Shown piece by piece: positions 26,702 to 64,000 of a stretch of 64,000 nt of DNA. Position numbers and translations under genes: made by a program. A model generated the notes under the pieces. That model was not told the DNA's origin and ran no database searches. It saw only the letters and a list, made by a program, of their open reading frames with translations. The first letter of the stretch is position 1. The number at the start of each line of letters is the position of its first letter. The DNA lies in NCBI GenBank assembly GCA_029263015.1, contig JAJCYI010000079.1, forward strand, positions 1 through 64,000, given 5' to 3'. The stretch is from Saprospiraceae bacterium. GTDB taxonomy: Bacteria > Bacteroidota > Bacteroidia > Chitinophagales > Saprospiraceae.

Positions 26702-27883
26702 ATGAAGACATTAGAAGATTTAATTGCAGAGTGTGAGGAACTTGCATTCGATTTGAATTTTACAAGAGCTAAAAACTGGAAAGAGGAAAAAGAAGGAAGG
26801 GTGTTGGTGGGATATATGCCTATTTATTTCCCACGAGAAATTATTCATGCCGCAGGTGCCATGCCTGTTGGTATTTTTGGAGGTGGGGACAATAAGCAAA
26901 TCATTAAGGGGGATGCTTATTACCAATCCTATATCTGCCATATTCCAAGAAGCATCATGGAAATTGCGCTCGACAAACATATGGATCATATTGATGGATT
27001 CATTTTCCCTTCTATCTGTGATGTGATAAGAAACCTGTCCGGAATATTTAAACAACAAAAAATAGGGAAGTTTGTCAAATACATGGATTTCCCTCAAAAT
27101 TTCTTGCCTGAAATTGGCGGCATTTTCTACCAGCAAGAAATGGGTCATGTTTTAAAGTATATCAAAGAGCTTAATGGCAAAGAAGTTACGGTAGAAGACC
27201 TGAATCATTCCATCGATTTATACAATAAGAACCGCCAGATGATTGAGTTCATTTATGATATTCGACAGGATTATCCATGGCGCTTATCCATAGAAGAAGT
27301 TTATTGTATCGTTCGTGCAGGGACCGTTATACCAGTTGAAGAGCACAATGCAATTCTCGAACAAGTTTGCGAGCATATAAAAGAAGACATAGGCACTCCA
27401 CAAGATAAAATCAAAGTAGTGGTTTCTGGGGCATTTTGCGAACAACCTGCATTGGGATTGATTAGGGCGATAGAAGAAGCTGGATGCTATGTTGTAGATG
27501 ATGATTACCAATTGGGATCAAGGATGATTTTAGGTGATATTGATACGACTACAGACAACCCTCTGGCTACTATCGCTTTGGCTTATATTAAACAAAGCCA
27601 ATTCTCTTCCTCTATTTATGATGTCTATAATCCAAAAGAATATCGATTGGCAAAAATCGTAGAAGATCGGGAAGCTGACGGTGTGATTTTCGCGGCTGCA
27701 AGTTTTTGTGATCCAAGTTTGTTGGACGCGCCTATTTTCCAAAATGCATTTGACAAAATGGGGATACGATATATTGCATTTGTATTTAGTGAAAACATCA
27801 ATCAATATAAAGTAATAAAAGAGCAGGTAGGGACTTTTTCAGACTCAATAAAATTATGGGAGGATGACCTTGTTGCTGTATAA
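26702..27883 (+). CDS. bcrC: Benzoyl-CoA reductase (class I) gamma subunit
   Basis: 393 residues from MKTLEDL (an upstream GTG at 26666 would add 12 residues of unlikely sequence), close to the about 386 of Thauera BcrC. Typical stretches are GYMPIYFPREIIHAAG, PVGIFGGGDN, GDAYYQSYICH, PSICDVIRNLSG and MDFPQNF. Together with BcrB it forms the catalytic module of ATP-dependent benzoyl-CoA reductase, a cytoplasmic enzyme that dearomatises benzoyl-CoA to cyclohexa-1,5-diene-1-carbonyl-CoA using two ferredoxin electrons and ATP hydrolysis. First gene of the bcrCBAD set. Confidence 0.93.
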   Translation: MKTLEDLIAECEELAFDLNFTRAKNWKEEKEGRVLVGYMPIYFPREIIHAAGAMPVGIFGGGDNKQIIKGDAYYQSYICHIPRSIMEIALDKHMDHIDGFIFPSICDVIRNLSGIFKQQKIGKFVKYMDFPQNFLPEIGGIFYQQEMGHVLKYIKELNGKEVTVEDLNHSIDLYNKNRQMIEFIYDIRQDYPWRLSIEEVYCIVRAGTVIPVEEHNAILEQVCEHIKEDIGTPQDKIKVVVSGAFCEQPALGLIRAIEEAGCYVVDDDYQLGSRMILGDIDTTTDNPLATIALAYIKQSQFSSSIYDVYNPKEYRLAKIVEDREADGVIFAAASFCDPSLLDAPIFQNAFDKMGIRYIAFVFSENINQYKVIKEQVGTFSDSIKLWEDDLVAV

Positions 27884-27954
27884 TAAAGCAATTGATTGAT
27901 TAATTCGCCTACCTTAAAATAGCTACATTTATACATTCAATAAATTAAGTAAAT

Positions 27955-29241
27955 ATGTCAAAAGAAGCGCAAAAAGAAAAGAGTATGATCCTCCAGAAAG
28001 AGATGGTAAGTTCTCTTTTTAATGACCTGGCCCATGCTAAAGAATTAGGCAAAAAAGTTTGTTACACTTTTATTCCAGGAAACCTTTCTGAGCTGATCCA
28101 GACTTTTGACATGCTTCCGGTATATCCTGAAATAAATGCACTTCAAAGTGCCATGAGGAAAAAATCTTCCGCTTATATTAAAGAAGCAGAAAGGCATGCC
28201 CATTCGGAAGATGTATGCACTTACGTCAAGTGTGATGTGGGAATGATGATGAAAGGGAATATTGGCCCTACTGGACAAAAAATACCAGAGCCGGATGTTT
28301 TATTACTGAGTTATACAGGCTGCTTCACTTTCTTAAAATGGTTTGAAACCTTAAAAAGGGAATATCCAAATGCCAAGGTCATCATGGTGCATACGCCATA
28401 TCAGGAAAATGGAGAAATAACCTCGGAAATGACCGAATATATGGTGAAACAATTTAAAGAGGTTGTCATCCCCGAAATGGAAAAAGTCACAGGAATTAAA
28501 TTTGATGAAAGTAAATTGAAAAGGCATTTGACCTTGGCTGCCGAAGCGGAAGATTGGATTACCAAAATATTCGATTCCACAAAACATAAACCATCCCCAA
28601 TTGACGCCTATTTTGCTGGCGTATATTACATAGGTCCAATCAATATTGGTTTTAGGGGCACTCAGAAGGCCGTTGATTATTACAAAGAATTATACAAAGA
28701 AATTCAAGAAAGAATCGACAAAGGTTTGGGTCCGATCACACCGGAAGGTGAAATGAAGGAGGAAAAATACAGGCTTGTTGTGGAGGGGCCACCGAACTGG
28801 ACACATTTCAGGGAGTTCTGGAAAATATTCTACGATATGGGTGCCGTCATCGTGGCTTCTTCATACACTAAAGTAGGTGGGGTTTATGATTTGGGCTGGA
28901 GGCACGACCCTGAAAGACCGCTGGAAGCATTGGCGGAATATTGCATGAATTGTTATACCAACATGAATATTCCACAACGGATTGATTTATTGAAAAAATG
29001 CATTGTGGATTACGATGCAGATGGATATGTGACCAATTCAATCAAGAGTTGTAATTCTTTTTCAGCTGGCCAGTTGGGCATGATGCGTGAAATTGAAGAC
29101 AGTTTAGAGGTGCCGGTTGGTTTTATAGAATCTGATTTGGTCGATCCACGATATTTCTCTTATTCAAACATAAAAAACAGGTTAGAATCATATTTCCAAA
29201 TGCTGGAACAACGCAAAAAAATGGAAGCCGTACCTGTTTAA
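27955..29241 (+). CDS. bcrB: Benzoyl-CoA reductase (class I) beta subunit
   Basis: 428 residues (Thauera BcrB about 436). It belongs to the 2-hydroxyacyl-CoA dehydratase/HgdB fold, with CTYVKCDVGMM, SYTGCF, FAGVYYIGPINIGFRG and the C-terminal CNSFSAG region supplying probable Fe-S cysteines. It pairs with BcrC as the benzoyl-CoA-binding module. A 72-base gap separates it from bcrC, and CTACATTTATAC in the gap faintly resembles an internal promoter. Confidence 0.93.
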   Translation: MSKEAQKEKSMILQKEMVSSLFNDLAHAKELGKKVCYTFIPGNLSELIQTFDMLPVYPEINALQSAMRKKSSAYIKEAERHAHSEDVCTYVKCDVGMMMKGNIGPTGQKIPEPDVLLLSYTGCFTFLKWFETLKREYPNAKVIMVHTPYQENGEITSEMTEYMVKQFKEVVIPEMEKVTGIKFDESKLKRHLTLAAEAEDWITKIFDSTKHKPSPIDAYFAGVYYIGPINIGFRGTQKAVDYYKELYKEIQERIDKGLGPITPEGEMKEEKYRLVVEGPPNWTHFREFWKIFYDMGAVIVASSYTKVGGVYDLGWRHDPERPLEALAEYCMNCYTNMNIPQRIDLLKKCIVDYDADGYVTNSIKSCNSFSAGQLGMMREIEDSLEVPVGFIESDLVDPRYFSYSNIKNRLESYFQMLEQRKKMEAVPV

Positions 29242-29267: not shown

Positions 29268-30689
29268 ATGAAAAAATATTATTTAGGAATTGATTTAGGC
29301 TCAACTACTTCCAAAGCTGTTATCATTAACGAAAACGATGAGATTATTGGAAGAGGGATCACCAATACAAGAGCCAATTATAAAGTTGCTGCTGATATAG
29401 CAAAGGATGAAGCCATTTATGATGCCCGCTTTACTTTGTTAACCAATAAACTTAAAGAGGAAATTGAATCCAAACCTGAGTTTAAAAAATATATGGAAGA
29501 TATCAGAAGCATCTTTCAATATCGCCAATTTAAAAGGAGGATGGACAGTTTGGAAAAAAAATTAAAAGAAACTGTTGATAATTACAATTATGAAAATAAA
29601 GGTGAAATAGCAGTAGCATTAAATAAGATCATTGAAACCATTCGTCCACAGATTAGAGATGAATTTGTGGATGAAAATTTAGGATCCAAAAATCAATTTT
29701 TCAGGGATATTGTAAGTCAAAGATATAATGCTGAAGTAGAGAAAACCAATAAAACGCTGTTTGAACCTTTGATGTTGGCTTTTGATAAAAGTATTACACC
29801 GGTTGAAAATAAAATGGTTCAATTTAATTTTAAAGAACTGGTTGATGAATCAATGAAGCTACTGGAAGATAAGTACAAAGGATTGGTTGGTGAGCCGGAA
29901 GATGGGAAAAAAGAAGACTGGTATTATGCTGAATTGAACGCAGTGAAAAACAATTATAAAAATGTTGAAACCTCATTAAAAGAACATATAGATTCTATTG
30001 CCGAAGAGAATATCCACATCGCCAACATGGTCGGAACAGGCTATGGTAGGGCTTTGCTTCCTTTTCCTGAAGATTGTATTAAGTCTGAAATCCTCTGTCA
30101 CGCTTTCGGTGCACATGCCGTTTTTCCTGATACCAGAACCGTATTGGACATTGGGGGACAAGACACCAAAGCCATTCAGGTAGATAGTCACGGGTTGGTT
30201 ACCAGTTTCCATATGAATGATAGATGTGCAGCTGGTTGTGGAAGGTATTTAGGATACATAGCTGACGAATTTGGGATCTCATTAAATGAATTGGGGCCAG
30301 AAGCGATGAAAGCTGAAAAAGAAACAACTATATGTTCGACTTGTACTGTTTTTGCTGGTGCTGAAGTGAAAGAATTATTGCACAATGGAGAAAAGCGACC
30401 AAATATCTTAGCTGGTTTACACAAAGCAATTGTACAACGGGCCATGTCCTTAATTGCCCGTTCTGGAGGGGTCAGAAATGAATTTACTTTTACTGGGGGT
30501 GTTTCACGAAACCAGGCTGTATTAAAATATGTGAAGCAAATGGTTACTGATTCATATGGAGATGTGACCATGAACATTCATTCCGATTCAATATTTATGG
30601 GAGCATTGGGTGGGGCTATGTTCGCCAGACGAAATATTGAAGTTGTCCTTCCTTCCAAAAAGAAAAGGCCCGTATTAAAACATGCATGA
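29268..30689 (+). CDS. bcrA: Benzoyl-CoA reductase (class I) alpha subunit, ATPase
   Basis: 473 residues. It opens with the acetate-kinase/Hsp70-type phosphate loop GIDLGSTTSKAV. A largely helical insert follows (about 50-240), as in BcrA/BadF and absent from the short BzdQ/BcrD types. Then come GTGYGRA, DIGGQDTKAI, the cluster-binding CAAGCGRYLG and CSTCTVFAGAEV, and FTGGVSRN. With BcrD it binds one bridging [4Fe-4S] cluster and couples ATP hydrolysis to low-potential electron transfer. The long insert marks this as the Thauera/Rhodopseudomonas subtype. Confidence 0.93.
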   Translation: MKKYYLGIDLGSTTSKAVIINENDEIIGRGITNTRANYKVAADIAKDEAIYDARFTLLTNKLKEEIESKPEFKKYMEDIRSIFQYRQFKRRMDSLEKKLKETVDNYNYENKGEIAVALNKIIETIRPQIRDEFVDENLGSKNQFFRDIVSQRYNAEVEKTNKTLFEPLMLAFDKSITPVENKMVQFNFKELVDESMKLLEDKYKGLVGEPEDGKKEDWYYAELNAVKNNYKNVETSLKEHIDSIAEENIHIANMVGTGYGRALLPFPEDCIKSEILCHAFGAHAVFPDTRTVLDIGGQDTKAIQVDSHGLVTSFHMNDRCAAGCGRYLGYIADEFGISLNELGPEAMKAEKETTICSTCTVFAGAEVKELLHNGEKRPNILAGLHKAIVQRAMSLIARSGGVRNEFTFTGGVSRNQAVLKYVKQMVTDSYGDVTMNIHSDSIFMGALGGAMFARRNIEVVLPSKKKRPVLKHA

Positions 30690-30708: not shown

Positions 30709-31566
30709 ATGAATAATTCAATATATACAATGGGGATTGATGTGGGTGGCAGTTATGTCAAAGGCGTAATTGTGGCTTACGACCACGAAACAGGAAATCA
30801 CAAAATTATTGATAAACAAACGGAAAAAATTAGAAAAAGAAATCCCAAAGATGTGGTGATTGATACGGTGGATATGTTGTTACATCGCAATAATTTAAAT
30901 TATGAAAATGACATTGCCTATCTCGCATCTACAGGGGAAGGTGAAATGGTGAGTAAAAAAACGGGCCATTTTTATAGCATGACCTCACATGCCCGTGGCG
31001 GTAAATATTTTGTGCCAGATGCCAAAACTGTGGTTGATATGGGAGGGCTGTATGTCCGCGCCATTAAAATCGATGGAAGGGGAAAGGTGATGGATTATAA
31101 AATGACCGGACAATGTGCTTCTGGTTCAGGGCAGTTTATCGAAAACATATCCCGCTATCTTGGTCTGGCCATTGAAGAAGTTGGCCCCATGTCCTTACAA
31201 GCAGATAATCCAGAGATACCTTCTGGAATTTGTGCAGTCTTAGCTGAAACGGATGTAATTAACCTGGTGTCCAAAGGGCTTTCCACACCCAATATTGTTA
31301 AAGGAATAAACCTTTCCATTGCTGGCAGAGTGGTGAAATTACTAGGTTCGTTGAAAGCCGAATCACCAATTGCTTTGGTCGGTGGAATGGGAATGAATGC
31401 CGGAATGGTTCAGGCAGTCGAGGAATTATCACGGGAAAAGAAAAAAGCAGATTTAATTTTTGTTTCCCACCCTGATGCAATATACTCAGGAGCCACAGGA
31501 GCAGCACTTTGGGGTGGGTACAGATATTATAAATTAAAAGAAAAAGAAGCTGCCGTGGTAGCCTAA
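30709..31566 (+). CDS. bcrD: Benzoyl-CoA reductase (class I) delta subunit, ATPase
   Basis: 285 residues (Thauera BcrD about 282). Features are GIDVGGSYVKGV at the N terminus, DMGGLYVRAIKID, the cluster-binding Cys in GQCASGSGQFIEN and the second Cys in SGICAVLAETD, then ALVGGMGMN. It pairs with BcrA as the electron-activating module. No separate ferredoxin gene is next to it, unlike Thauera; a ferredoxin domain is fused to the IorA protein at 51244. Confidence 0.93.
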   Translation: MNNSIYTMGIDVGGSYVKGVIVAYDHETGNHKIIDKQTEKIRKRNPKDVVIDTVDMLLHRNNLNYENDIAYLASTGEGEMVSKKTGHFYSMTSHARGGKYFVPDAKTVVDMGGLYVRAIKIDGRGKVMDYKMTGQCASGSGQFIENISRYLGLAIEEVGPMSLQADNPEIPSGICAVLAETDVINLVSKGLSTPNIVKGINLSIAGRVVKLLGSLKAESPIALVGGMGMNAGMVQAVEELSREKKKADLIFVSHPDAIYSGATGAALWGGYRYYKLKEKEAAVVA

Positions 31567-31576: not shown

Positions 31577-33334
31577 ATGAAACAGCTCAATTCAGCATAT
31601 CAACTTAACGAAATTATTCTCAATGTAGCTACATTGTTAAAAATAAATGCTGCTAAATTTAGTGATAAATATGTTTATCAGGAAAAAGGGGATGATGGGT
31701 TTTACAAAGGAATAACATGGAAAATATTTTATCAAAATGTCAATAGAATTGCTTTTAATTTAAAGAAATTGGGATTTAATAAAGGTGAAAAAATGATTCT
31801 GTTCACGAGCAATAGTTTGGAGATGTTGGAGCTGGAATTGGCTGTTATGTCTTATGGTGGAATTGCAGTTCCCATATTTGCCCATTTTAAACAGGATACC
31901 GCTGAATTGCTCATCAACCATTCTGATGCTACCTGGATGGCTGTTTCCGGACAAGGTCAAATGAATAATATTGGAGGGGATTTAAATCAATTAAAATCAA
32001 TATTCCATTTTGATGAAGTAAATGATATTCGATACAATAATTTAATCCCTTTTACCGAATTATTGAATAATATTCCTCAAAATAAATCCTCTTGTTTGGA
32101 TGATACTATTGATGCCGATTCAGTTTGCTTGAACATGTATACTTCTGGCACAATGGGAACACCAAAATGTGTGCAATTAACGCATAAAAATATCTTGTCG
32201 CAACAGGCGGCTTTGGATATTGTCTGGGATGTAAATGAGCACGACAGGTTTTTAGCATATCTTCCTTGGCACCATAGCTTTGGAGGTATTTTTGAATTGT
32301 TCACGGCACTGTATAGTGGTGCTACCTATTCTCTGGAAAGCAGTTACGGAAGAGATGTTGATTCTATTTTTGAAAACTGGAAACTGGTTCGTCCAACTGT
32401 ATTTTTTAGTGTACCAAAAGTTTATCAGGCACTTTATGAAAAAACTGTGGCTAGTAAAGAGGCAGAAGATATATTCTTTAATTCTGGCCTAAAATTCATT
32501 TTTACTGCTGCTGCGGCTTTGCCTGAAAAACTCTCCCAAGAATTTCAAAAAAGAAATATTCCTGTAATTGAAGGTTGGGGATTAACTGAAACCTCACCTT
32601 GTTGCACGTTAACCGACCCATCGTTAAAAAGAATTTCGGGAGTAGTAGGGAATCCAATTCCAGGTGTAAATGTGCGTATTGCTGATGATGGCGAAATTCA
32701 AGTTAAAGGACCAAATGTCATGGTTGGATATTACCACAACGTCGAAGCAAATAAAAATACTTTTACTAAAGATGGTTGGTACAAGACGGGCGATGTTGGG
32801 GGAATTACCGAAACGGGCTTAAAATTAATTTCAAGAAAAGATAGAATTTTCAAACTTTCAAATGGCGAGAAGGTCGTTCCAACTGACCTTGAAAAAGTAA
32901 TTGAATTAAAATGTCATTACGTGCAGCACGTAATTATTTCAGGAAGTGGAGAGGACCATCCCGTTGCACTGATTTTCCCCAACAAAAAATTATTAGAAAA
33001 ACCGGATTACGCATTGAGCCCAGAACAAGGTTGCTTTTGTCCAAGGAGCTTGAATGAGCTTGGAAAATGCCTCAGAGGTTGCTTGCACGATGCCAATTGT
33101 GACATCAAGCAAAAGTTTGCCAAGATTAAATCAGCAGCAATCATTAATAGTGAATTATCATTGGATGATAGAACCCTAACTCCATCAATGAAAGTGGCCC
33201 CAAAAAATGTATTGGAAAAATATAAAGAACACCTCAAAAACATGTATGGAGAAAAGGTGCCTGTTGAGGAAGAGGTGTATTTGGTTGAATTGGATGTTAA
33301 AAATAATATAGCAAGAAAAATTGTACACGATTAA
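31577..33334 (+). CDS. AMP-forming acyl/aryl-CoA ligase
   Basis: 585 residues of the adenylate-forming family: YTSGTMGTPK near residue 187, YLPWHHSFGG, EGWGLTETSP near residue 332, and GWYKTGDVG followed by SRKDR. Overall it resembles long-chain acyl-CoA synthetases. It lies 10 bases after bcrD, so it may activate benzoate, 2-aminobenzoate or indoleacetate. The C-terminal region has an unusual Cys-rich stretch with Cys486, 488, 498, 502 and 508, which could bind a metal or reflect redox control. The canonical C-terminal catalytic Lys is not obvious to me around this insert. Confidence 0.85.
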   Translation: MKQLNSAYQLNEIILNVATLLKINAAKFSDKYVYQEKGDDGFYKGITWKIFYQNVNRIAFNLKKLGFNKGEKMILFTSNSLEMLELELAVMSYGGIAVPIFAHFKQDTAELLINHSDATWMAVSGQGQMNNIGGDLNQLKSIFHFDEVNDIRYNNLIPFTELLNNIPQNKSSCLDDTIDADSVCLNMYTSGTMGTPKCVQLTHKNILSQQAALDIVWDVNEHDRFLAYLPWHHSFGGIFELFTALYSGATYSLESSYGRDVDSIFENWKLVRPTVFFSVPKVYQALYEKTVASKEAEDIFFNSGLKFIFTAAAALPEKLSQEFQKRNIPVIEGWGLTETSPCCTLTDPSLKRISGVVGNPIPGVNVRIADDGEIQVKGPNVMVGYYHNVEANKNTFTKDGWYKTGDVGGITETGLKLISRKDRIFKLSNGEKVVPTDLEKVIELKCHYVQHVIISGSGEDHPVALIFPNKKLLEKPDYALSPEQGCFCPRSLNELGKCLRGCLHDANCDIKQKFAKIKSAAIINSELSLDDRTLTPSMKVAPKNVLEKYKEHLKNMYGEKVPVEEEVYLVELDVKNNIARKIVHD

Positions 33335-33347
33335 ATCCACATCATTA

Positions 33348-55738: not shown

Positions 55739-58078
55739 ATGATGAAAAAAGAACTAAAAGTAATCGGTAAATCAACGAAGAAACTTGATGGCAAGGCAAG
55801 GGTTTCAGGGCAAGCAGTTTATGGCCATGATATTGAATTACCCAATATGTTACACGGTTCGATTCTCAGGACCAAATACCCATGTGCAGAAATAATTTCC
55901 ATTGATACCTCAAAAGCAGAGGTGTTCGAAGGAGTAGAATGTGTCATTACCGCAAATGACATTGATGTCAATAATATCAGTTATAAAAGGGATCACCCCA
56001 TCCTCAAAAAGGGAACCGTAAATTGTAATCGTGATGAAATCGCAGCAGTGGCAGCAAGGAACAAAGAAATAGCGGATAAAGCTATTCAATTGATTGAGGT
56101 GAAATACAAGGTTAAGGATGGCATTTATGATCCATTTGAAGCCTTAAAGGATGATGCTCCAAGAGTAAATGAATTTGGAAAAGGGGCTGAGAAATTTGGC
56201 AATAAAAATATAGCCGAATCATTTCATTACGAGCATGGTGATCTGGAAGGGCAAAAAGCAAAAAGTAAAGTCATTATTAAAAAATCCTACGAATTGCCAC
56301 GCGTTACTCATGCCTGCATGGCAACCAGCAATATTACTGCAGATTTTAATCAATTGGATGGCCGGTTAACGCTATGGTCCTCCACGCAGGTTCCATTTTT
56401 ATATCAACGGGATATCGCACACGCTCTCAAAATGGCCCCTTCCCTGATCAGGGTAATCCAACCGATCATCGGTGGTGGTTTTGGCAGCAAACTGGACATG
56501 CACCCCTTTGAACCTATTTGTGCGCTTTTGTCAATAAAAAGCGGAAAACCTGTTCAGATATTATTCTCCAGAGAGGAAGAATTCATTTTATCTCCAACCC
56601 GTCAGCCCATGGTAATTGAACTGACCACTGGAGCGGATGAAAACGGGAAATTTACTTTTAGGGAAGTGGAAATCATAAAAGATAACGGAGCTTACACTTC
56701 CTGGGGCGCCACAACTCCTTTTGTGATGATGCAAACTTACTCCTCACTTTATCAGGTGCCTGCCTGCAAATTTGATTCTCACGCTATTTATACCAATAAT
56801 CCATTTGCCGGTTCATTCCGTGGCTATGGTAACCCGCAGGCTACTTTTTCTATTGAAACCAATATTGACCTTATGGCAGAGGAACTGGGAATGGACAAGG
56901 GAGAGATAAGGTTGATCAATGCCAATTACAAAGGAGAGATTACGGGACAAGGGTTGATTTATAAAACCTGCGGCGCAATTCCCGCTTTAGAAACGGTAAT
57001 CAGAAAAAGTGGATTTGATCAAATCGTGAATGAGCCAAAAACAGGTAGATATTTAAGAGGCATTGGTTTAGGTTCGATGCTACACGTTGGGGGAGGAGCT
57101 AAGATTTATCGTTCTGATGGTTGCGGGACCATATTGAAATTGGATGATTATGGGTATCTCACAATCGTTACGGGATCAAACGAAATAGGCCAGGGGTCTG
57201 AAACTGTTCTGGCCATGATTGCCATTGAGGAATTGGGAATCCCCATGGATAAAATAAAAGTAATCAATACAGATACCGATGTCAAGCCATGGGATGTAGG
57301 TGTTCATGCCTCAAGAACAAGTTTTGTAGCAGGGAACTCACTGTTGGGAGCGATCAAACTCCTGAAAGAAAAATTAAATAGTAAAGCCTCTGAATTACTG
57401 GATATAGAAACGGAGAATTGGGATTACATGGACGGAAAAATGTATTTCGGAGAATTTGAAATAAACCTTGACAAGGTTGCACGTGAAATACATTTTGGCC
57501 CTCCACATGAATTATGTACCGTCAGTTATTTCTATGAGCCGCCAAGCAGCTTCCAGGATAAAGAATACAAAGGGGATGTTTCGGGAAATTATGCCTTCGC
57601 TTCACAAGCCATTGAAGTGGAAGTGGACACAGTGACGGGAAATATTAATGTGCTTAGTGTCCATGTTTCACAAGATGTTGGCAGGGTGCTTAACCCGATT
57701 GGCTTACAAGGACAGATGGAAGGAGGGGTAGCAACAGGTGCGGGATATGCCTTGACGGAAGAAATGATTTATGAAAAAGGTATGCTTAAAAACCCAAGCT
57801 TTCATGGTTATAAATTATTGACCACAACAGATATGCCCCCAGTCCACTTTTATCCCATCGAAACTTACGACGAAGCAGGCCCTTATGGTTCGAAAGGAGC
57901 AGGCGAAGCACCATTGATCCCGACAGCCGCTGCCATCGCCAATGCTGTTTCAAATGCATTGGGAGTTAGATTTTATTCTCTGCCAATAACTGCGGAAAAG
58001 GTGCTTAAGGCTTTGTCTGAAAAGAAGAATGAATTGAAATTGGAACGGGTGTATTTCAAAATGTCGGTGGAAACATAG
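55739..58078 (+). CDS. Molybdopterin large subunit, candidate indoleacetate dehydrogenase
   Basis: 779 residues, 2 bases after the [2Fe-2S] gene. The layout is that of xanthine-dehydrogenase-family large subunits: VSGQAVYGHDI at the start, IGGGFGSKLD, GSFRGYGNPQA, EIGQGSE and the catalytic Glu in GSKGAGEAP near the C terminus. The enzyme inserts a water-derived oxygen. The last about 10 codons lie in the left arm of a long inverted repeat (58047-58165), so the C-terminal tail may have been altered by that element. Substrate inferred from neighbours only. Confidence 0.88.
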   Translation: MMKKELKVIGKSTKKLDGKARVSGQAVYGHDIELPNMLHGSILRTKYPCAEIISIDTSKAEVFEGVECVITANDIDVNNISYKRDHPILKKGTVNCNRDEIAAVAARNKEIADKAIQLIEVKYKVKDGIYDPFEALKDDAPRVNEFGKGAEKFGNKNIAESFHYEHGDLEGQKAKSKVIIKKSYELPRVTHACMATSNITADFNQLDGRLTLWSSTQVPFLYQRDIAHALKMAPSLIRVIQPIIGGGFGSKLDMHPFEPICALLSIKSGKPVQILFSREEEFILSPTRQPMVIELTTGADENGKFTFREVEIIKDNGAYTSWGATTPFVMMQTYSSLYQVPACKFDSHAIYTNNPFAGSFRGYGNPQATFSIETNIDLMAEELGMDKGEIRLINANYKGEITGQGLIYKTCGAIPALETVIRKSGFDQIVNEPKTGRYLRGIGLGSMLHVGGGAKIYRSDGCGTILKLDDYGYLTIVTGSNEIGQGSETVLAMIAIEELGIPMDKIKVINTDTDVKPWDVGVHASRTSFVAGNSLLGAIKLLKEKLNSKASELLDIETENWDYMDGKMYFGEFEINLDKVAREIHFGPPHELCTVSYFYEPPSSFQDKEYKGDVSGNYAFASQAIEVEVDTVTGNINVLSVHVSQDVGRVLNPIGLQGQMEGGVATGAGYALTEEMIYEKGMLKNPSFHGYKLLTTTDMPPVHFYPIETYDEAGPYGSKGAGEAPLIPTAAAIANAVSNALGVRFYSLPITAEKVLKALSEKKNELKLERVYFKMSVET

Positions 58079-58165
58079 CGCGGATTTCCCAATCCGCCCT
58101 GTTTATGTTTACAGCCGGATTGGGAAATCCGGCCTACCTTCTTACCGACATTTTGAAATGCACCC
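58047..58165. repeat. Long nested inverted repeat overlapping a gene end
   Basis: Inner arms CGGATTTCCCAATCCG (58081-58096) and their exact complement (58116-58131). Outer 22-base arms at 58047-58068 and 58144-58165 match with one mismatch. The outer left arm lies in the 3' end of the molybdopterin gene and the right arm is upstream of the FAD gene. In RNA this would form a strong stem between two subunits of one enzyme. Confidence 0.8.
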
Positions 58166-58197
58166 ATTGGAACTGGAATACAATTAAATCATATCAA

Positions 58198-59064
58198 ATG
58201 GATTTTGACGTAATAAATGTTACTACCACTGATGAATTGTGCAGCGCCATTGCTGGCAACCTAAATAATAACTTCCGCATAGGCGCTGGTTATACCGATT
58301 TAATATTGGAACTTAAACAGGCCCGTGTTCAGGACCTTACTATAATTAATATAGCACAGTTAGAAGATCCTTCTTTCAATTCGATTATTGAAAAAGGTGA
58401 CCATATAATTTTAGGGGCATTGGTCACGGCTTCTGACCTAGTGGACAATAAAAAAATAAAAGAAGAATATCCTGTATTGTACGAGTCTGCATTGAGTGTG
58501 GCTTCCACTCAAATCAGGAATTCAGCAACGGTGGGCGGAAACATATGCAATGCTTCTCCCGCCGCAGACATGTCAGCCGCATTAGTAGCGCTTCAGGCCA
58601 TTTGTAACATCTTGGATTCCGATGGCAGGGAAAGAAATGAACCCCTTGTTTCATTTATCAAAGGGGTTCGTAAAACTTCATTGGTAAAAAATGAAATCTT
58701 GAAAAGTATTTCTATTCCTAAAAACTCAAGTTCCCATATTAAATCAGGGTTTGAGAAAGTAGGCACGAGAAAATCAATGGAAATCTCAATTGTCTCATTG
58801 TCATATCATATTCAATGTAGCTCAGAGGGGACTATAGAAAAAGCGGGGGTGAGCTGTGGTGCTGTCGCAACAACTATTCCTTTCGCAAGCTCTGCTTGCA
58901 ATTTTTTGATTGGAAAGAACATAGATGCTATTTCAGAAATTGAAAGGATAGGGTTTGCGAAAAAAGTATTGGAATATGCCATCCCTATATCAGACATAAG
59001 AGCCTCTGCATGGTACAGGAAAGAAGTGCTTTTCAATATCAGCAAATCCATATTTGAATCGTGA
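58198..59064 (+). CDS. FAD subunit of the molybdenum hydroxylase
   Basis: 288 residues from MDFDVIN, the family's normal length. A start at 58105 is rejected because it lies within the inverted repeat. CoxM/XdhB-type motifs: IGAGYTDLI near residue 38 and ATVGGNICNASPAADM near residue 110. There is no Cys-rich [4Fe-4S] insert, unlike the HcrB-like subunit at 21259, so this enzyme should run in the oxidising direction. That fits an indoleacetate hydroxylating enzyme feeding NAD or another acceptor. Confidence 0.88.
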   Translation: MDFDVINVTTTDELCSAIAGNLNNNFRIGAGYTDLILELKQARVQDLTIINIAQLEDPSFNSIIEKGDHIILGALVTASDLVDNKKIKEEYPVLYESALSVASTQIRNSATVGGNICNASPAADMSAALVALQAICNILDSDGRERNEPLVSFIKGVRKTSLVKNEILKSISIPKNSSSHIKSGFEKVGTRKSMEISIVSLSYHIQCSSEGTIEKAGVSCGAVATTIPFASSACNFLIGKNIDAISEIERIGFAKKVLEYAIPISDIRASAWYRKEVLFNISKSIFES

Positions 59065-59225: not shown

Positions 59226-60485
59226 ATGAAAGGATTTCACAACAGGAAAAAAGGGTTTGGAATAACTTACGATGATATTTATCTCGTAAATGGAGCAAGA
59301 ACTCCATTTGGGAAACTTTGTGGGACTTTAGGTCAAGTTTCTCCAACCGATTTAGGGATTTATGCAACAAAAGCAGCGCTCGAAAAATCAGGGATAAAAG
59401 GAGGAGATATTGATCAGCTAATGTTTGCCAACATTGGACAATGTTCAGCGGATTCATATTTCCTGCCCCGCCATATTGGTTTGTACGCAGGTATTCCAGA
59501 AGGTATTCCTGCTGTGATGCTGCAACGTATTTGCGGTAGTGGTTTTGAAACTATCATTGCCGGCGCAGAACAAATTTCACTGGGCAAGGCGGGTTCTGCA
59601 CTTTGTGGGGGAACAGAAAACATGACCCTTTCTCCCACGGTGAGTTTTGGTAACAGAATGGGATACCCTCTGGGAAAAATAGATTTTAAAGACATGCTTT
59701 GGGAAGCCCTGAACGATACCGCTGCAGTCCCCATGGGATGCACCGCCGAGAACATTGCCAAAAAACACGGCATTACCAAAGAAGAAGCGAATGTTCTTGC
59801 CAAAGAATCTATTGACAAATACATAGCCGCTAAAAAGAGGGGCTTTTTTGATGATGAGGTTATTAAAATGAATTCCACCGTTTTTGAAATGGAAGGATTA
59901 AAGCCAAGAAAAGTAAGACTTCCTCGAAAAACTGTTGACTTCAATGTGGATGAAAACGTGCGCCCGACAGAATTAGAGGTGATGGCAAAATTGCCCTCTG
60001 TTTTTGCCAAAGATGGTGTTCAGACTGCAGCTAATTCAAGTGGTATTGTTGACGGTGCGGCCTCTGTTGTTGTGACTGGGAAAGATTTTATTGAAAATAA
60101 AGGATTAAAACCACTTTCAAAAATCATTGCTTCCGCAACAAGTGCTTTGGACCCAAAAGTAATGGGGTTAGGCCCCGTTCCTTCCATCCGATTGGTTTTG
60201 GAATTGACAGGATTAGATATAGACGATATTGGTCTGATCGAAATTAACGAGGCATTTGCTGCGCAATTTATTGGCTGTGAAAGAGAATTGGGTTTGAATC
60301 GGGATATATGCAATGTGAACGGCGGTGCCATTGCATTAGGCCATCCTTTAGCCGCCACCGGAACGCGTTTATCATTGACACTTTCGAGAGAAATGAAAGC
60401 AAGAGGGGTTAAATATGGTATTGCATCTGCCTGCATTGGCGGCGGGCAGGGAACAGCTATTTTATTTGAAAATCCGAACATCTAA
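59226..60485 (+). CDS. Acetyl-CoA acyltransferase (thiolase)
   Basis: 419 residues with the classical thiolase sites: Cys103 in QRICGSGFE, NEAFAAQF, GGAIALGHPLAATG and the second Cys in ACIGGGQG. It comes after a 160-base gap from the molybdoenzyme and 10 bases before had. It may release acetyl-CoA from 2-aminobenzoylacetyl-CoA, or act lower in the pathway on 3-oxopimelyl-CoA. Confidence 0.92.
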   Translation: MKGFHNRKKGFGITYDDIYLVNGARTPFGKLCGTLGQVSPTDLGIYATKAALEKSGIKGGDIDQLMFANIGQCSADSYFLPRHIGLYAGIPEGIPAVMLQRICGSGFETIIAGAEQISLGKAGSALCGGTENMTLSPTVSFGNRMGYPLGKIDFKDMLWEALNDTAAVPMGCTAENIAKKHGITKEEANVLAKESIDKYIAAKKRGFFDDEVIKMNSTVFEMEGLKPRKVRLPRKTVDFNVDENVRPTELEVMAKLPSVFAKDGVQTAANSSGIVDGAASVVVTGKDFIENKGLKPLSKIIASATSALDPKVMGLGPVPSIRLVLELTGLDIDDIGLIEINEAFAAQFIGCERELGLNRDICNVNGGAIALGHPLAATGTRLSLTLSREMKARGVKYGIASACIGGGQGTAILFENPNI

Positions 60486-60495: not shown

Positions 60496-61551
60496 ATGGG
60501 AGAATTAAAACAATGGCAAATGACTAAATTGAAAAAGGAATTTTCTTTGGTCGAATCGGATTTGCCTTCAATTAATGAAAGAGAAGCCATTGTGAAAATT
60601 GCTGGCTGCGGTGTTTGCCATACCGATCTAAGCTTCTGGCACGATGGCGTTCGTACTAAGAAAGAAATGCCTTTGACATTGGGTCATGAAATTAGTGGAG
60701 TGGTGATTGAAGGACCTGAACATTTAGTTTGGAAGAATGTAATTGTTCCTGCTGTTTTGCCCTGCGGCGATTGTGAATTGTGCAATAAAGGCCGAAGCAA
60801 TATGTGCCAGAAACAATTGATGCCTGGAAATGATTTTCATGGCGGTTTTGCTTCTCATATTGTTGTTCCCCATCAATATTTATGTCCAATTCCTGATTCT
60901 ATATTAGAGAAATATCCTTTAGCGGAACTTTCAGTCATTGCCGATGCAATATCTACTCCATACCAAGTGATGAAAAAATCTGAACTGGAAGAAGGGGATT
61001 TGGCGATTGTAATTGGAGTCGGCGGAGTCGGTGTTTATGGAGCATTAATCGCCAAAATAATGGGCGCTAAAGTCTTAGCGATTGACATCAATGATGAAAA
61101 ATTAGACCAGGCAAAAGCACATGGCGTAGATGCCACTTTAAATTCTAAAGGTTTAACCAACAGAGAAATAAAAACTAAAGTAAGAGAGGTTGCCAAAGAA
61201 TTGGGAGCTTCCAAGTTCGGTTGGAAAATTTTTGAAATCTCAGGTACAGCTCCGGGTCAAGAATTGGCATTTAGTTTAATAACATTCACCTCAACTTTAA
61301 GCATAGTAGGATTTACGATGAATAAATTAGAGGTGCGGTTAAGCAATCTCATGGCTTATGATGCAAAGTTGATTGGTACTTGGGGTTGCAAGCCTGAACT
61401 GTACCCAGAAGTCGTTGATTTAATTGCATCCGAAAAATTAAACATTAAAGATTTCGTGCAAACAATCCCTATGTCTCAGATCAACGAAGTATTTAAAAAC
61501 ACTTTGGAACATAAATATAGCAAACGGTCTGTCTTGACCCCGGATTTTTAG
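60496..61551 (+). CDS. had: 6-hydroxycyclohex-1-ene-1-carbonyl-CoA dehydrogenase
   Basis: 351 residues of the zinc alcohol dehydrogenase family (Thauera Had about 368). The catalytic zinc region is CGVCHTDLSFWHDGVRTK, with GHEISG and the structural-zinc set CGDCELCNKGRSNMC. The NAD fold has GVGGVGVYG. The WHDGV and PGNDFHGGFASH stretches are those of Had. It oxidises the hydrated dienoyl-CoA to the 6-oxo compound in the benzoyl-CoA route. The neighbours oah and dch confirm the assignment. Confidence 0.92.
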   Translation: MGELKQWQMTKLKKEFSLVESDLPSINEREAIVKIAGCGVCHTDLSFWHDGVRTKKEMPLTLGHEISGVVIEGPEHLVWKNVIVPAVLPCGDCELCNKGRSNMCQKQLMPGNDFHGGFASHIVVPHQYLCPIPDSILEKYPLAELSVIADAISTPYQVMKKSELEEGDLAIVIGVGGVGVYGALIAKIMGAKVLAIDINDEKLDQAKAHGVDATLNSKGLTNREIKTKVREVAKELGASKFGWKIFEISGTAPGQELAFSLITFTSTLSIVGFTMNKLEVRLSNLMAYDAKLIGTWGCKPELYPEVVDLIASEKLNIKDFVQTIPMSQINEVFKNTLEHKYSKRSVLTPDF

Positions 61552-62264: not shown

Positions 62265-63365
62265 ATGTTGATTAATCACAATTTAACAAGACACAAATAT
62301 TCTGACATTATTTATGAAAAAAGATCTGTAAAAGATCTGAATGGTAATGATGTAGATGGATTATATAATGCGTGGATAATAATAAATAATCCATCTCAAT
62401 ATAATTCTTATACAACGCAAGCTGTCAAAGAAATCATCTTGGCCATGCGGGAAGCTTCTAACGACAGGAGCGTGGTGGCAGTAGTTTTTACGGCTGTTGG
62501 CAATAAAGCATTTTGTACTGGCGGCAACACCAAAGAATATGCAGAATACTACGCCGGAAACCCGCAAGAGTACAAACAATATATGCGGTTGTTCAACGAT
62601 ATGGTTTCAACCATATTGATGAACGACAAGCCTGTTATTTGCCGTGCCAATGGAATGCGGATTGGTGGTGGGCAGGAAATTGGGATGGCATGTGACTTCA
62701 CTATTGCCCAAGATTTGGCTCGCTTTGGACAGGCTGGGCCAAAGCATGGAAGTGCGCCCGATGGTGGTTCCACTGACTTTTTGCATTTATTTGTAGGCGT
62801 TGAGCTGGCGATGTTCTCCTGCACGGTTTGCGATCCTTGGTCTGCCCACGAAGCTATGCGTTATGGCTTACTGACAGAGGTTGTGCCTGCCCTTAAAGTA
62901 AATGGAAAATATATCCCAAATCCCATGGTCCGGACTGATAGATGGACAAGTAAAAAGACGGGAGAAATTATTTACGGCAAATTAAAGAGAGGGGAATCAA
63001 TGACAAAAGGAAAAGAACTGCTCAAGTCTGGAGAAATAGATTTGTCGCTGTTGGATGAAGCAGTTGAAAAAATGTGTACTAAATTAATGATGACGTTCCC
63101 AAATTGTTTAAGTAAAACTATTAACTCAATCAGGAAGAAAAAATTAGAACACTGGGACCAAAATAAAGAATCGAACCGGGATTGGTTGGCATTAAACATG
63201 ATGACCGAAGCTAAAGCAGGATTTAAAGCATTTAATGACGGACCAAGAGGAGATAGAGAAATTGATTTTGTAAAATTGAGACAAATGTTAGCAGAAGGGA
63301 TGGAGTGGAACGATGAAATGCACGAAGCAATTTCCCCACAGTACAAAACTGAAAGCGTCTTATGA
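62265..63365 (+). CDS. oah: 6-oxocyclohex-1-ene-1-carbonyl-CoA hydrolase
   Basis: 366 residues (Thauera Oah about 377), an atypical crotonase. Diagnostic stretches are FGQAGPKHGSAPDGGSTDFL near residue 155, VGVELAMFSCTVCDPWSAHEA and the WTSKKTGEIIYGK region. It adds water and cleaves the ring to 3-hydroxypimelyl-CoA in one enzyme. Its end overlaps dch by 4 bases. Confidence 0.94.
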   Translation: MLINHNLTRHKYSDIIYEKRSVKDLNGNDVDGLYNAWIIINNPSQYNSYTTQAVKEIILAMREASNDRSVVAVVFTAVGNKAFCTGGNTKEYAEYYAGNPQEYKQYMRLFNDMVSTILMNDKPVICRANGMRIGGGQEIGMACDFTIAQDLARFGQAGPKHGSAPDGGSTDFLHLFVGVELAMFSCTVCDPWSAHEAMRYGLLTEVVPALKVNGKYIPNPMVRTDRWTSKKTGEIIYGKLKRGESMTKGKELLKSGEIDLSLLDEAVEKMCTKLMMTFPNCLSKTINSIRKKKLEHWDQNKESNRDWLALNMMTEAKAGFKAFNDGPRGDREIDFVKLRQMLAEGMEWNDEMHEAISPQYKTESVL

Positions 63366-64000
63366 TGGAAAAGATCAAATTAAATTTTACGCATAATAAT
63401 GAGGTCGCCAATATTGTGTTGGATGATGGGAAAGGGAATGTGTTGGATAATACAATGATGTTGGAACTACTTGAATTATTTTCCCAATTTAAAGATAATA
63501 AGGATATCAAACTTATTACCTTTCAGGGAGAGGGCAAACATTTTTCTTTTGGTGCCAGTGTTCCGGAACATACAAAAGAATATGCTGAAATGATGATTAA
63601 AACCTTTCACCGGATCTTCTTTAAAATAATAGATTTAAGCATTCCGACATTGGCCAAAATTTCCGGCCAATGTTTAGGAGGTGGAATGGAATTGGCATTG
63701 GCTTGCAATTTTATGTTTGCCGATAAAACAGCCATTTTAGCTCAACCTGAAATAATATTAGGTGTATTTCCTCCACCGGCTTCTATTATGTTACCGTTAA
63801 AAATTGGAAATGCACGGGCTGAAGAAATATTGTTGACCGGAAGGAATATCCACGCTGAAGAAGGTGAGCGTATTGGATTGCTAAATAAAGTTTTTGAAGA
63901 TAAAGAAGCGTTAAGTGCCGGTGTTGATAAATGGATAAATAAAAACATTATTCCAAAAAGTGCTTCCTCGTTAAAGTTTGCCGTTAAATCAGCCCGCACA
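63362..64000 (+). CDS. dch: Cyclohexa-1,5-diene-1-carbonyl-CoA hydratase, 3' end beyond the window
   Basis: The first 213 codons of a crotonase, open to the end of the window. The start is at ATGATG overlapping the oah stop. Typical crotonase features are FSFGASVPEH near residue 60 and GQCLGGGMELALACNF near residue 100, with the oxyanion-hole glycines, followed by AQPEIILGVFPPPAS. The PPPAS stretch and the place next to oah and had fit Dch. It hydrates the dienoyl-CoA made by the reductase. Confidence 0.9.
   Translation, partial: MMEKIKLNFTHNNEVANIVLDDGKGNVLDNTMMLELLELFSQFKDNKDIKLITFQGEGKHFSFGASVPEHTKEYAEMMIKTFHRIFFKIIDLSIPTLAKISGQCLGGGMELALACNFMFADKTAILAQPEIILGVFPPPASIMLPLKIGNARAEEILLTGRNIHAEEGERIGLLNKVFEDKEALSAGVDKWINKNIIPKSASSLKFAVKSART

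What the first reader, a model, noticed from the sequence alone, without database searches (positions are those of the whole stretch)
26702..64000. One 37-kb plus-strand cluster combines an indoleacetate-type pathway with class I benzoyl-CoA reductase in a probable Bacteroidota
Twenty-eight genes encode nearly every enzyme class reported for anaerobic indoleacetate degradation in Azoarcus/Aromatoleum, plus the whole benzoyl-CoA reductase, Had, Oah and Dch. Those pathways are known mainly from Proteobacteria and other anaerobes, and are not usual in Bacteroidota. The set looks like a complete tryptophan/indole-to-acetyl-CoA route in one block. The pathway reading is inference from gene content.
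Basis: partly seen in the sequence, partly recalled or inferred. Interest (0 to 1): 0.9.

Follow-up and report, generated by a model that had tools for sequence, protein, structure and literature searches.

The report
Bacteroidota aromatic amino acid degradation island
A genome of the phylum Bacteroidota carries one long gene block that looks able to break tryptophan, and probably other aromatic amino acids, down to common metabolites without oxygen, a capacity known from only a few cultured microbes.

Summary
Confirmed in substance. All 28 plus-strand genes exist (26702-64000; the last, dch, ends at 64138 and korAB follows to 67004). The phylum is Bacteroidota. The block is two modules. A core (bcrCBAD, CoA ligase, a third dehydratase-family subunit "HadB2", PanE-activase fusion, thiolase, had, oah, dch) recurs without the rest in seven relatives. 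A 22.5-kb cassette (36571-59064) sits between panE-activase and thl2 and carries orthologues of the characterised Aromatoleum aromaticum EbN1 iaa operon: HyuB 67%, mutase 67%, IaaF 53% with its diagnostic GGG motif.

It differs from EbN1 in entry. The indoleacetate-CoA ligase is missing and an Ior-type indolepyruvate oxidoreductase follows the CoA-transferase (16 of 17 Bacteroidota loci, 0 of 13 Pseudomonadota), so tryptophan, not auxin, is the likely substrate.

HadB2 resembles 2-hydroxyacyl-CoA dehydratases somewhat more than benzoyl-CoA reductases. With PanE, a ligase and a 4-hydroxybenzoyl-CoA-reductase-like set, I propose an aryllactyl-CoA route for phenylalanine and tyrosine into the same hub. 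This is inference.

The block is not unique: 46 of the 80 best HyuB relatives are Bacteroidota. Open: the fate of 2-aminobenzoyl-CoA, HadB2's missing partner, and all biochemistry.

The parts
14951..17037 (+). molybdenum-cofactor transferase (mocA-like), XdhC-type maturation factor, SDR dehydrogenase: accessory genes of the upstream molybdoenzyme
   Evidence: Pfam/NCBIfam; some or all of these genes beside bcr in relatives
17053..19824 (+). hcrCA: fused FeS + molybdopterin subunit, 4-hydroxybenzoyl-CoA-reductase-like
   Evidence: TIGR03194 827 bits (cut-off 995, not reached); 59-72% relatives beside bcr in G001, G003, G012, G057, G070, G096, G155
21259..22191 (+). hcrB: FAD subunit, 4-hydroxybenzoyl-CoA-reductase-beta-like
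   Evidence: TIGR03195 213 bits (cut-off 405, not reached)
26702..27883 (+). bcrC, benzoyl-CoA reductase subunit C (ORF opens at 26666)
   Evidence: TIGR02263 432 bits, over cut-off
27955..29241 (+). bcrB, benzoyl-CoA reductase subunit B
   Evidence: TIGR02260 652 bits, over cut-off
29268..30689 (+). bcrA, ATPase/activase subunit
   Evidence: TIGR02259 430 bits (cut-off 578)
30709..31566 (+). bcrD, ATPase/activase subunit
   Evidence: TIGR02261 307 bits (cut-off 313)
31577..33334 (+). AMP-forming acyl-CoA ligase of the core (27% identical to the EbN1 iaa ligase)
   Evidence: PF00501; EbN1 comparison
33321..34559 (+). HadB2: third BCR/HAD-family catalytic subunit, proposed (R)-2-hydroxyacyl(aryllactyl)-CoA dehydratase
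   Evidence: NF052455 HadB 213 bits against BcrB 171; S40, E58, C87, C126, C354 in 20 of 20 sequences; AlphaFold model closest to 3o3m/3o3o HadB
34563..36416 (+). PanE-type 2-oxoacid reductase domain fused to a dehydratase activase (ATPase) domain
   Evidence: PF02558+PF08546 and PF01869; nearest solved relatives; the two halves are separate genes in G389
36571..38589 (+). fadB-like 3-hydroxyacyl-CoA dehydrogenase + enoyl-CoA hydratase; first gene of the cassette
38602..40734 (+). hyuA: hydantoinase/caprolactamase-family subunit (iaa type), proposed ATP-dependent opening of the oxindole ring
   Evidence: 48% to the EbN1 iaa protein
40740..42476 (+). hyuB: second subunit (iaa type)
   Evidence: 67% to the EbN1 iaa protein, outside HyuB 29-32%
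42489..43853 (+). TrpB2-like tryptophan synthase beta; possible indole + serine feed into tryptophan
   Evidence: NF009057 723 bits over cut-off; solved TrpB relatives
43879..44343 (+). RidA-family enamine/imine deaminase
   Evidence: TIGR00004 55 bits (cut-off 106); RidA in 33 of 39 Bacteroidota loci
44344..45471 (+). acdA = IaaF-type (2-aminobenzyl)malonyl-CoA dehydrogenase
   Evidence: GGG motif at 358-360; 53% to EbN1 IaaF
45468..46820 (+). HMG-CoA-synthase-like domain + OB-fold (BbsA-like) protein, thiolase partner
46805..48004 (+). thiolase (BbsB-like among its matches), proposed cleavage of (2-aminobenzoyl)acetyl-CoA
48005..48394 (+). mutS: B12-binding subunit of acyl-CoA mutase (iaa type)
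   Evidence: 44% to EbN1
48391..50013 (+). mutL: catalytic subunit of acyl-CoA mutase (iaa type)
   Evidence: 67% to EbN1; own methylmalonyl-CoA mutase 39%; tree
49976..51208 (+). caiB: class III CoA-transferase (IaaL type)
   Evidence: 49% to EbN1
51223..55264 (+). iorA (fused to a GltD-like NAD(P)/FeS domain) and iorB: indolepyruvate-oxidoreductase type, proposed source of indoleacetyl-CoA
   Evidence: TIGR03336 580 bits (cut-off 651), TIGR03334 128 bits (cut-off 206); domains
55266..59064 (+). xdhC, xdhA, xdhB: molybdenum hydroxylase (iaa type), proposed hydroxylation of indoleacetyl-CoA at C2; last genes of the cassette
   Evidence: xdhA 50% to EbN1 against 35% for hcrCA
59226..60485 (+). 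thl2: beta-ketothiolase of the core
   Evidence: TIGR01930 over cut-off
60496..61551 (+). had: 6-hydroxycyclohex-1-ene-1-carbonyl-CoA dehydrogenase
   Evidence: TIGR03201 over cut-off
62265..63365 (+). [quoted passage not shown]
   Evidence: TIGR03200 over cut-off
63362..64000 (+). dch: cyclohexa-1,5-dienecarbonyl-CoA hydratase, runs on to 64138 of the contig
   Evidence: full length TIGR03189 217 bits (cut-off 292)

Best explanation
The block is an anaerobic aromatic amino acid degradation island with benzoyl-CoA as its hub. Tryptophan arm (the 36571-59064 cassette): tryptophan is transaminated to indolepyruvate, and IorAB oxidises it to indoleacetyl-CoA. The Xdh-type enzyme hydroxylates C2 and HyuAB opens the oxindole ring with ATP. 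CaiB shifts CoA within (2-aminophenyl)succinyl-CoA, MutSL rearranges it to (2-aminobenzyl)malonyl-CoA, and the IaaF-type enzyme oxidatively decarboxylates that to 2-aminocinnamoyl-CoA. FadB and the Bbs-like thiolase then give 2-aminobenzoyl-CoA and acetyl-CoA. Its amino group is removed (gene unassigned; my guess is BcrABCD acting on 2-aminobenzoyl-CoA with RidA hydrolysing the enamine). BcrABCD, Dch, Had and Oah then reduce and open the ring, and KorAB recycles reduced ferredoxin. Core arm (inferred): PanE reduces phenylpyruvate or 4-hydroxyphenylpyruvate to the (R)-aryllactate, the ligase adds CoA, and HadB2 with its activase removes water to give cinnamoyl- or coumaroyl-CoA. Beta-oxidation gives benzoyl-CoA or 4-hydroxybenzoyl-CoA, and the Hcr-like enzyme dehydroxylates the latter. 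Shown here: gene content, order, orthology to the EbN1 iaa operon, the IaaF motif, separability of the two modules, and recurrence. Inferred: every substrate and reaction. I hold the iaa-type identity of the cassette at about 0.9, tryptophan as its input at about 0.8, and the phenylalanine/tyrosine arm at about 0.45; the figure below is for the whole.
For: Orthology to the EbN1 iaa operon, identified by its exact iaaF primers. GGG motif in 69 of 70 alignment rows, the seventieth (L107) being cut off before it; PMC8360864 section 15 part 1 gives GGG as the mark of the IaaF subclass. Ior-type gene downstream of caiB in 16 of 17 Bacteroidota loci with 900 bp of room and 0 of 13 Pseudomonadota; IaaB-type ligase (over 250 bits) upstream of hyuA in 0 of 36 Bacteroidota and 15 of 17 Pseudomonadota with 2.5 kb of room. 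Cassette boundary: the next matched gene after panE-activase is thl2 in seven class I clusters (G001, G003, G012, G057, G070, G155, G504) and fadB, followed by hyu genes, in five others besides the window (G096, G494, G532, L070, L072). A second hit in the HadB2 score range accompanies BcrB in 30 of 31 iaa genomes (141-184 bits) and in all 10 Bcr genomes of the relatives and phylum samples (split over two contigs in G002), with or without the cassette; 20 of these proteins and their kin were aligned. HadB2 also occurs beside a Bzd-type reductase (G524: BzdN and BzdO over cut-off) and in three class II BamB genomes (G493, G496, G500), so it is unlikely to be the ring reductase. Best family HadB in 18 of 18 HadB2 sequences matched (window 213 bits against 171 for BcrB; best E 1.7e-67 against 2.4e-54). 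A class I/II aminotransferase gene lies between two panE genes next to hadB2 in G524. A Bacteroidota MAG (koll-22) expresses peptidases and benzoyl-CoA-degradation enzymes together (PMC8099898, passages).
Against: No second dehydratase subunit accompanies HadB2, although characterised 2-hydroxyacyl-CoA dehydratases are heterodimers (PMC11574389, passage); two HadB2 genomes show no BcrC-like protein (G493, G496). HadB2 scores far below the HadB equivalog cut-off (213 of 750), and its structural lead over ring-reductase subunits is small. TM-scores of the PanE model favour ketopantoate reductases slightly (0.75-0.77 for 5ayv, 5hws, 3hwr) over D-mandelate dehydrogenases (0.58-0.75), although Foldseek's E-value order starts with the latter; the model is only moderate (pLDDT 74). 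No aminotransferase lies among the 28 genes; two of other classes (V at 141-1427, III at 11457-12761) lie elsewhere in the window. Ior substrate could not be read from sequence in a study of such enzymes (PMC13290082, passage), and IorA/IorB are below their cut-offs. No gene for the amino group of 2-aminobenzoyl-CoA is assigned. One genome without a cassette match (G070) still has a cassette-type FadB (66%). No expression or growth data.
Confidence: 0.6

Rival explanations
1. The cassette degrades imported indoleacetate (auxin), as in EbN1, and Ior is only an accessory.
For: The downstream enzymes are iaa-type.
Against: No IaaB-type ligase upstream in 36 of 36 Bacteroidota loci with room; Ior-type gene in 16 of 17. 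The core ligase is only 27% identical to the EbN1 ligase and exists without the cassette. A ligase elsewhere in the genome was not searched for.
Confidence: 0.12
2. Free indole is the main substrate: TrpB2 joins indole and serine to tryptophan, which enters the pathway.
For: TrpB2 lies inside the operon and in 10 of 46 Bacteroidota loci of the scan.
Against: Of 27 Bacteroidota loci with 6 kb of room on both sides only 8 have it, so it is at best an optional feed; serine is spent.
Confidence: 0.12
3. HadB2 and its activase are the missing 2-aminobenzoyl-CoA reductase, removing the amino group to give benzoyl-CoA.
For: Same enzyme superfamily as ring reductases; a review names a 2-aminobenzoyl-CoA reductase in anaerobic Azoarcus evansii and the passages seen give no gene (PMC4539516); HadB2 is present in iaa genomes with three kinds of ring reductase.
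Against: HadB2 is as constant in core-only genomes without iaa genes (G001, G012, G057, G070 no HyuA match, G003 only a 34% paralogue; G155, G389 no HyuB match at 1e-60). Betaproteobacterial iaa genomes do without it: G534 and G535 give only 50-54-bit hits; G538 and G539 give one hit each above the HadB2 range (232 and 213 bits), in G538 next to a BcrC-like gene. It does not explain the fused 2-oxoacid reductase.
Confidence: 0.2
4. The core is an ordinary benzoate/4-hydroxybenzoate (lignin-aromatic) operon; HadB2/PanE do something unrelated.
For: Ligase, Hcr-like and Bcr genes alone would suffice for 4-hydroxybenzoate and benzoate.
Against: Does not account for the recurring HadB2-activase-PanE trio, found beside Bcr, Bzd and in BamB genomes.
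Confidence: 0.2

Closest known systems
iaa operon of Aromatoleum aromaticum EbN1 (anaerobic indoleacetate degradation; Ebenau-Jehle 2012 and Schuhle 2016 as cited in PMC8360864)
   Same: HyuAB-type hydrolase, IaaF with GGG motif, two-subunit mutase, class III CoA-transferase, molybdenum hydroxylase, in similar order
   Different: no IaaB ligase; Ior added; RidA, TrpB2 and a Bbs-like HMGS-OB/thiolase pair added; inserted into a class I bcr operon
Class I benzoyl-CoA reductase (Thauera/bcr type) with Dch-Had-Oah
   Same: four subunits and all three ring-opening enzymes in one run of genes
   Different: Bacteroidota host; BcrA, BcrD and Dch under curated cut-offs; accompanied by HadB2, activase, PanE and ligase
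(R)-2-hydroxyacyl-CoA dehydratases HadBC/HadI and phenyllactate dehydratase FldBC/FldI of Clostridia (Fld recalled and from PMC13416013 passages)
   Same: HadB2 catalytic-subunit residues and fold, plus a dedicated ATP activase
   Different: one subunit instead of two; activase fused to a PanE-type reductase; placed beside benzoyl-CoA genes
4-hydroxybenzoyl-CoA reductase (Hcr/Hba)
   Same: best NCBIfam match for both subunits
   Different: FeS and Mo subunits fused; both below cut-off; a PLP decarboxylase gene lies between the subunits in this genome

Membership tests
anaerobic indoleacetate (iaa) pathway | IaaF subclass mark: GGG instead of YEG near the C-terminus | tested here: met
   GGG at 358-360; 69 of 70 rows, the other cut off before the column; EbN1 IaaF has the same FTLIGGGTSEILK
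anaerobic indoleacetate (iaa) pathway | HyuB, mutase and Mo-hydroxylase nearer to the EbN1 iaa proteins than to paralogues | tested here: met
   identities; mutase tree with the genome's own two other mutases as outgroup. HyuA and CoA-transferase: identity to EbN1 only, no outgroup run
anaerobic indoleacetate (iaa) pathway | IaaB indoleacetate-CoA ligase in the operon | tested here: not met
   not among the 28 window genes; the only ligase is 27% identical to the EbN1 ligase; 0 of 36 Bacteroidota loci. So: an iaa-type pathway with another entry, not the EbN1 operon itself
anaerobic indoleacetate (iaa) pathway | activity on indoleacetyl-CoA intermediates | not testable with these tools
   needs enzymology
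class I benzoyl-CoA reductase | BcrA, B, C, D all present | tested here: met
   best family matches; B and C over, A and D under the curated cut-off
class I benzoyl-CoA reductase | ATP-dependent ring reduction | not testable with these tools
   needs enzymology
(R)-2-hydroxyacyl-CoA dehydratase (HadB2) | three cysteine ligands and the Ser/Glu pair seen in HadB 3o3m | tested here: met
   C87, C126, C354, S40, E58 in 20 of 20 HadB2 sequences; 13 of 13 BcrB keep the cysteines and glutamate but have V or I at the serine; 3o3m alignment. The role of the Ser/Glu is recalled, not from a call
(R)-2-hydroxyacyl-CoA dehydratase (HadB2) | second, homologous subunit | tested here: not met
   no dehydratase-family gene besides bcrB, bcrC and hadB2 in the window block; no BcrC-like match in G493, G496
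(R)-2-hydroxyacyl-CoA dehydratase (HadB2) | NCBIfam HadB equivalog cut-off (750 bits) | tested here: not met
   213 bits; HadB matched by 18 of 18 and the best family of the window protein
4-hydroxybenzoyl-CoA reductase | NCBIfam equivalog cut-offs | tested here: not met
   827 of 995 and 213 of 405 bits
class II (BamB) reductase as ring reductase of this genome | AOR-family BamB gene | tested here: not met
   no AFOR_C match in G000

The most novel reading that the evidence does not exclude
Uncultured Bacteroidota and neighbouring phyla carry one modular island for complete anaerobic oxidation of all three aromatic amino acids. Phenylalanine and tyrosine enter by a previously unrecognised oxidative use of an aryllactyl-CoA dehydratase whose single catalytic subunit is driven by an activase fused to the arylpyruvate reductase; tryptophan enters through indoleacetyl-CoA made by Ior. 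All converge on benzoyl-CoA, whichever ring reductase (Bcr, Bzd or Bam) is present.
Probability: 0.4. Interest if true: 0.8.

Novelty: new variant of a known kind. Interest (0 to 1): 0.66.

Why it matters
If right, Bacteroidota that feed on protein in anoxic settings could finish aromatic amino acids themselves instead of excreting phenylacetate, indole or indoleacetate. The block also offers concrete genes for two open questions: how benzoyl-CoA is reached from phenylalanine and tyrosine in these organisms, and how the amino group of 2-aminobenzoyl-CoA is removed. In the listings of the five full-text searches that bear on it I saw no paper describing iaa genes in Bacteroidota; those listings were capped at 10-20 papers, and subscription journals are mostly absent from that library.

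Tried and rejected
HadB2 as the ring reductase: considered because G493, G496 and G500 have Had, Oah, Dch and HadB2 but no Bcr over cut-off. Rejected: each carries BamB (L224 of G493 1210 bits to 4z3w; L226 of G496 and L225, L228 of G500 79-83% identical to L224). L222, another AOR-family protein of G496, is not BamB (best to aldehyde oxidoreductases).

HadB2 pairing with BcrC: a BcrC-like protein of about 245 aa occurs in four genomes without Bcr over cut-off (G256, G513, G520, G524), but G493 and G496 have none, so it is not required; MAG gaps remain possible.

FadH/OYE-like protein 'u4' as the 2-aminobenzoyl-CoA enzyme (35 genomes): at 38% identity or more it is in 6 of 8 iaa genomes without BcrB over cut-off (G256, G500, G513 partial, G520, G524, G538; not G493, G496) and in 1 of 18 iaa genomes with it (G497). 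EbN1 (G929) has it too, but its Bcr type was not tested; G516, with a BcrB-like hit under the cut-off, has none; both are outside the counts. The remaining seven genomes, core-only, have none above 32%. It cannot serve this genome, whose best match is 31%. Left open.

Plasmid searches for an annotated iaa operon gave none or one remote hydantoinase of 38%. The primer search of 300 genomes of the order of G538 found nothing; a protein search of 395 genomes of its family then found iaaF-like genes in 51, of which I looked at G929 and one other, G965. The VIA-align library was not available. Of the genome-contig scan only the best 80 of 416 relatives were returned, so the phylum mix is biased towards this protein; 50 of the 80 went into, and 15 of those 50 plus 8 other genomes into. 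Rows covering under 75% of the query or below 38% identity were dropped before the trees; the tree is FastTree with long outgroup branches that do not form one side of a branch, and is only indicative. The ridA, trpB2 and linkage counts use tblastn hits at 1e-20 and can miss short or split genes. A first Ior count with 4.5 kb of room beyond mutL (3 of 3 Bacteroidota, 1 of 1 Fidelibacterota, 1 of 1 Ignavibacteriota, 0 of 3 unassigned, 0 of 13 Pseudomonadota, 0 of 2 Planctomycetota) was replaced by the count.

Full report
Anatomy. The window is the first 64 kb of a 110-kb contig in a 6.95-Mb genome. Twenty-eight plus-strand genes run from bcrC (26702) to dch, which ends at 64138 beyond the window; korAB follows to 67004. 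Neighbouring genes are 71 bp or less apart except at two places, 154 bp before fadB and 161 bp after xdhB. Upstream, 14951-22191 holds a 4-hydroxybenzoyl-CoA-reductase-like molybdoenzyme with its maturation genes, separated from bcrC by a hemerythrin-like gene and a TonB-dependent receptor on the other strand. The only RNA gene found is a tRNA-Met at 14404.

Two modules. In relatives the run bcrCBAD-ligase-hadB2-panE/activase has thl2-had-oah-dch as its next matched genes (G001, G003, G012, G057, G070, G155, G504; in G070 the run is split over two contigs, in G012 the gap is 814 bp), and in G389 panE and activase are separate genes. In G096, G494, G532, L070 and L072, as in the window, fadB and the iaa-type genes follow panE-activase. 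G504 is an iaa genome, so there the two modules are unlinked. Of the core-only relatives, G001, G012, G057 and G070 have no HyuA match and G003 only a 34% paralogue; G155 and G389 have no HyuB match at 1e-60. The cassette is therefore an insertion into, or a loss from, a stable core; direction was not tested.

Identity of the cassette. PMC8360864 (introduction, first part of the discussion, and passages seen) names IaaB ligase, IaaL CoA-transferase, IaaGH mutase and IaaF dehydrogenase and prints the cloning primers of iaaF of A. aromaticum EbN1. Against it the window proteins are 48% (HyuA), 67% (HyuB), 53% (AcdA), 44% (MutS), 67% (MutL), 35% (XdhB), 50% (XdhA) and 49% (CaiB); the genome's own methylmalonyl-CoA mutase is 39%, eight of nine outside HyuB proteins 29-32% (the ninth has no match over 60 bits), HcrCA 35%. 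AcdA carries GGG in place of YEG; 69 of 70 rows show GGG and one is cut off before it. In the mutase tree, rooted on the genome's two other mutases, the window sits in a 28-row set with 24 Bacteroidota (support 97) and EbN1 in a 15-row set with 14 Pseudomonadota (support 100).

Entry point. The EbN1-type ligase lies upstream of hyuA in 15 of 17 Pseudomonadota loci with 2.5 kb of room, and in 0 of 36 Bacteroidota, 0 of 3 Fidelibacterota, 0 of 2 Planctomycetota, 0 of 2 unassigned, 0 of 1 Calditrichota and 0 of 1 Ignavibacteriota. An Ior-type gene follows caiB in 16 of 17 Bacteroidota (not L084), 1 of 1 Fidelibacterota, 1 of 1 Ignavibacteriota and 1 of 1 unassigned loci, and in 0 of 13 Pseudomonadota and 0 of 2 Planctomycetota. 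[quoted passage not shown] The window's IorA is fused to a GltD-like NAD(P)/FeS domain. TrpB2 is in 10 of 46 Bacteroidota loci and RidA in 33 of 39 that span hyuB and acdA, against 1 of 18 in Pseudomonadota.

Distribution. BcrB over the cut-off occurs in 8 of 100 relatives including this genome and 3 of 395 genomes drawn across the phylum including it; HyuB of 78% or more in 2 of 395 including it. By contrast, a scan of named genomes for iaa-type HyuB gave 416 relatives, of which the 80 best were kept: 46 Bacteroidota, 19 Pseudomonadota, 4 Fidelibacterota, 3 Planctomycetota, one each of Calditrichota, Ignavibacteriota and Candidatus Electryoneota, and 5 unassigned. Of 50 of these 80 genomes tested, 31 have BcrB over the cut-off. 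Six of the 46 Bacteroidota loci show cassette and core on one stretch. PMC8099898 (passages) already reports a Bacteroidota MAG, koll-22, expressing benzoyl-CoA-degradation enzymes and peptidases.

The HadB2 module. Thirty of the 31 BcrB genomes (not G501), and all ten, have a second, lower-scoring hit of the HadB2 type (one genome, G096/G526, is in both sets); 20 HadB2 proteins were checked by alignment. The module also stands beside a Bzd-type reductase (G524, BzdN 480 and BzdO 690 bits, over cut-off) and occurs in three BamB genomes, so it goes with the pathway rather than with a kind of reductase. HadB2 and BcrB are each one side of a branch. HadB2 keeps the three cluster cysteines and the Ser and Glu that align with HadB 3o3m; 13 of 13 BcrB have V or I in place of the serine. 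Its model (pLDDT 85) matches HadB best, by a small margin: TM 0.86-0.88 by query length against 0.85-0.87 for MbdO and 0.80-0.83 for BzdO, E 4e-25 against 6e-24 and 1e-20. The PanE half keeps K196, N200 and E278 in 10 of 10 sequences (their catalytic role is recalled). By sequence its nearest solved relatives are an uncharacterised E. faecalis protein (71 bits) and D-mandelate dehydrogenases (70 and 65 bits), then ketopantoate reductase (61 bits) (titles); TM-scores lean slightly to ketopantoate reductases. ADP-forming ligases stand in place of the AMP-forming one in G493, G496, G500 and G524. A class I/II aminotransferase gene stands near hadB2 in G524, and similar genes lie in the G504, G532 and L074 stretches.

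Reading. A 2-oxoacid reductase, a CoA ligase, a 2-hydroxyacyl-CoA dehydratase with activase, beta-oxidation genes, an Hcr-like enzyme and a ring reductase make sense together as phenylalanine/tyrosine to aryllactate, aryllactyl-CoA, cinnamoyl- or coumaroyl-CoA, benzoyl-CoA. The same chemistry from phenylpyruvate to benzoyl-CoA through a phenyllactyl-CoA dehydratase is proposed, unproven, for a benzene degrader (PMC13416013, passages). Against it stand the missing second subunit, weak family scores and no assays. The alternative that HadB2 removes the amino group of 2-aminobenzoyl-CoA is less likely because HadB2 is as constant without iaa genes.

Verdict. The best description is a tryptophan-fed variant of the iaa pathway set in a Bacteroidota benzoyl-CoA core that probably also serves phenylalanine and tyrosine.

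Noticed in passing
window 19832-21265: A PLP-dependent decarboxylase gene (PF00282) lies between hcrCA and hcrB; in the seven relatives whose hcr pair was seen whole (G001, G003, G012, G057, G070, G096, G155) the two hcr genes are adjacent or overlap.
   Followed up: partly
window 61566-62222: A transglutaminase-core protein of unknown role between had and oah; no match to it was sought or seen in the relatives' clusters.
   Followed up: no
joined stretch L259+L260 (G929, EbN1), 36030-38489: In EbN1 a RidA-like gene (44%) stands next to a FadH/OYE-like gene whose relatives at 38% or more are in 6 of 8 iaa genomes without BcrB over cut-off and 1 of 18 with it.
   Followed up: partly
L067 (G389) 7294-10914: A narG nitrate reductase gene (1478 bits) lies a few kb beyond the bcr core, fitting nitrate respiration in that genome.
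   Followed up: no
L103: A MAG labelled Competibacteraceae carries a Bacteroidota-type iaa block with ridA, and its genome has BcrB over cut-off: bin contamination or gene transfer.
   Followed up: no
G256 contigs C13, C28, C37: A 100%-complete genome with scattered iaa genes and HadB2 next to a caspase-domain gene, but no BcrB over cut-off and no AFOR match: ring reduction unexplained.
   Followed up: partly
window 51223-54666: IorA is fused to a GltD-like NAD(P)/FeS domain, so indolepyruvate oxidation may be linked to NAD(P) rather than ferredoxin.
   Followed up: partly
window 45468-46820: Fusion of an HMG-CoA-synthase-like domain with an OB-fold domain next to a thiolase, recalling archaeal HMGS/thiolase/DUF35 and BbsAB complexes.
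   Followed up: partly
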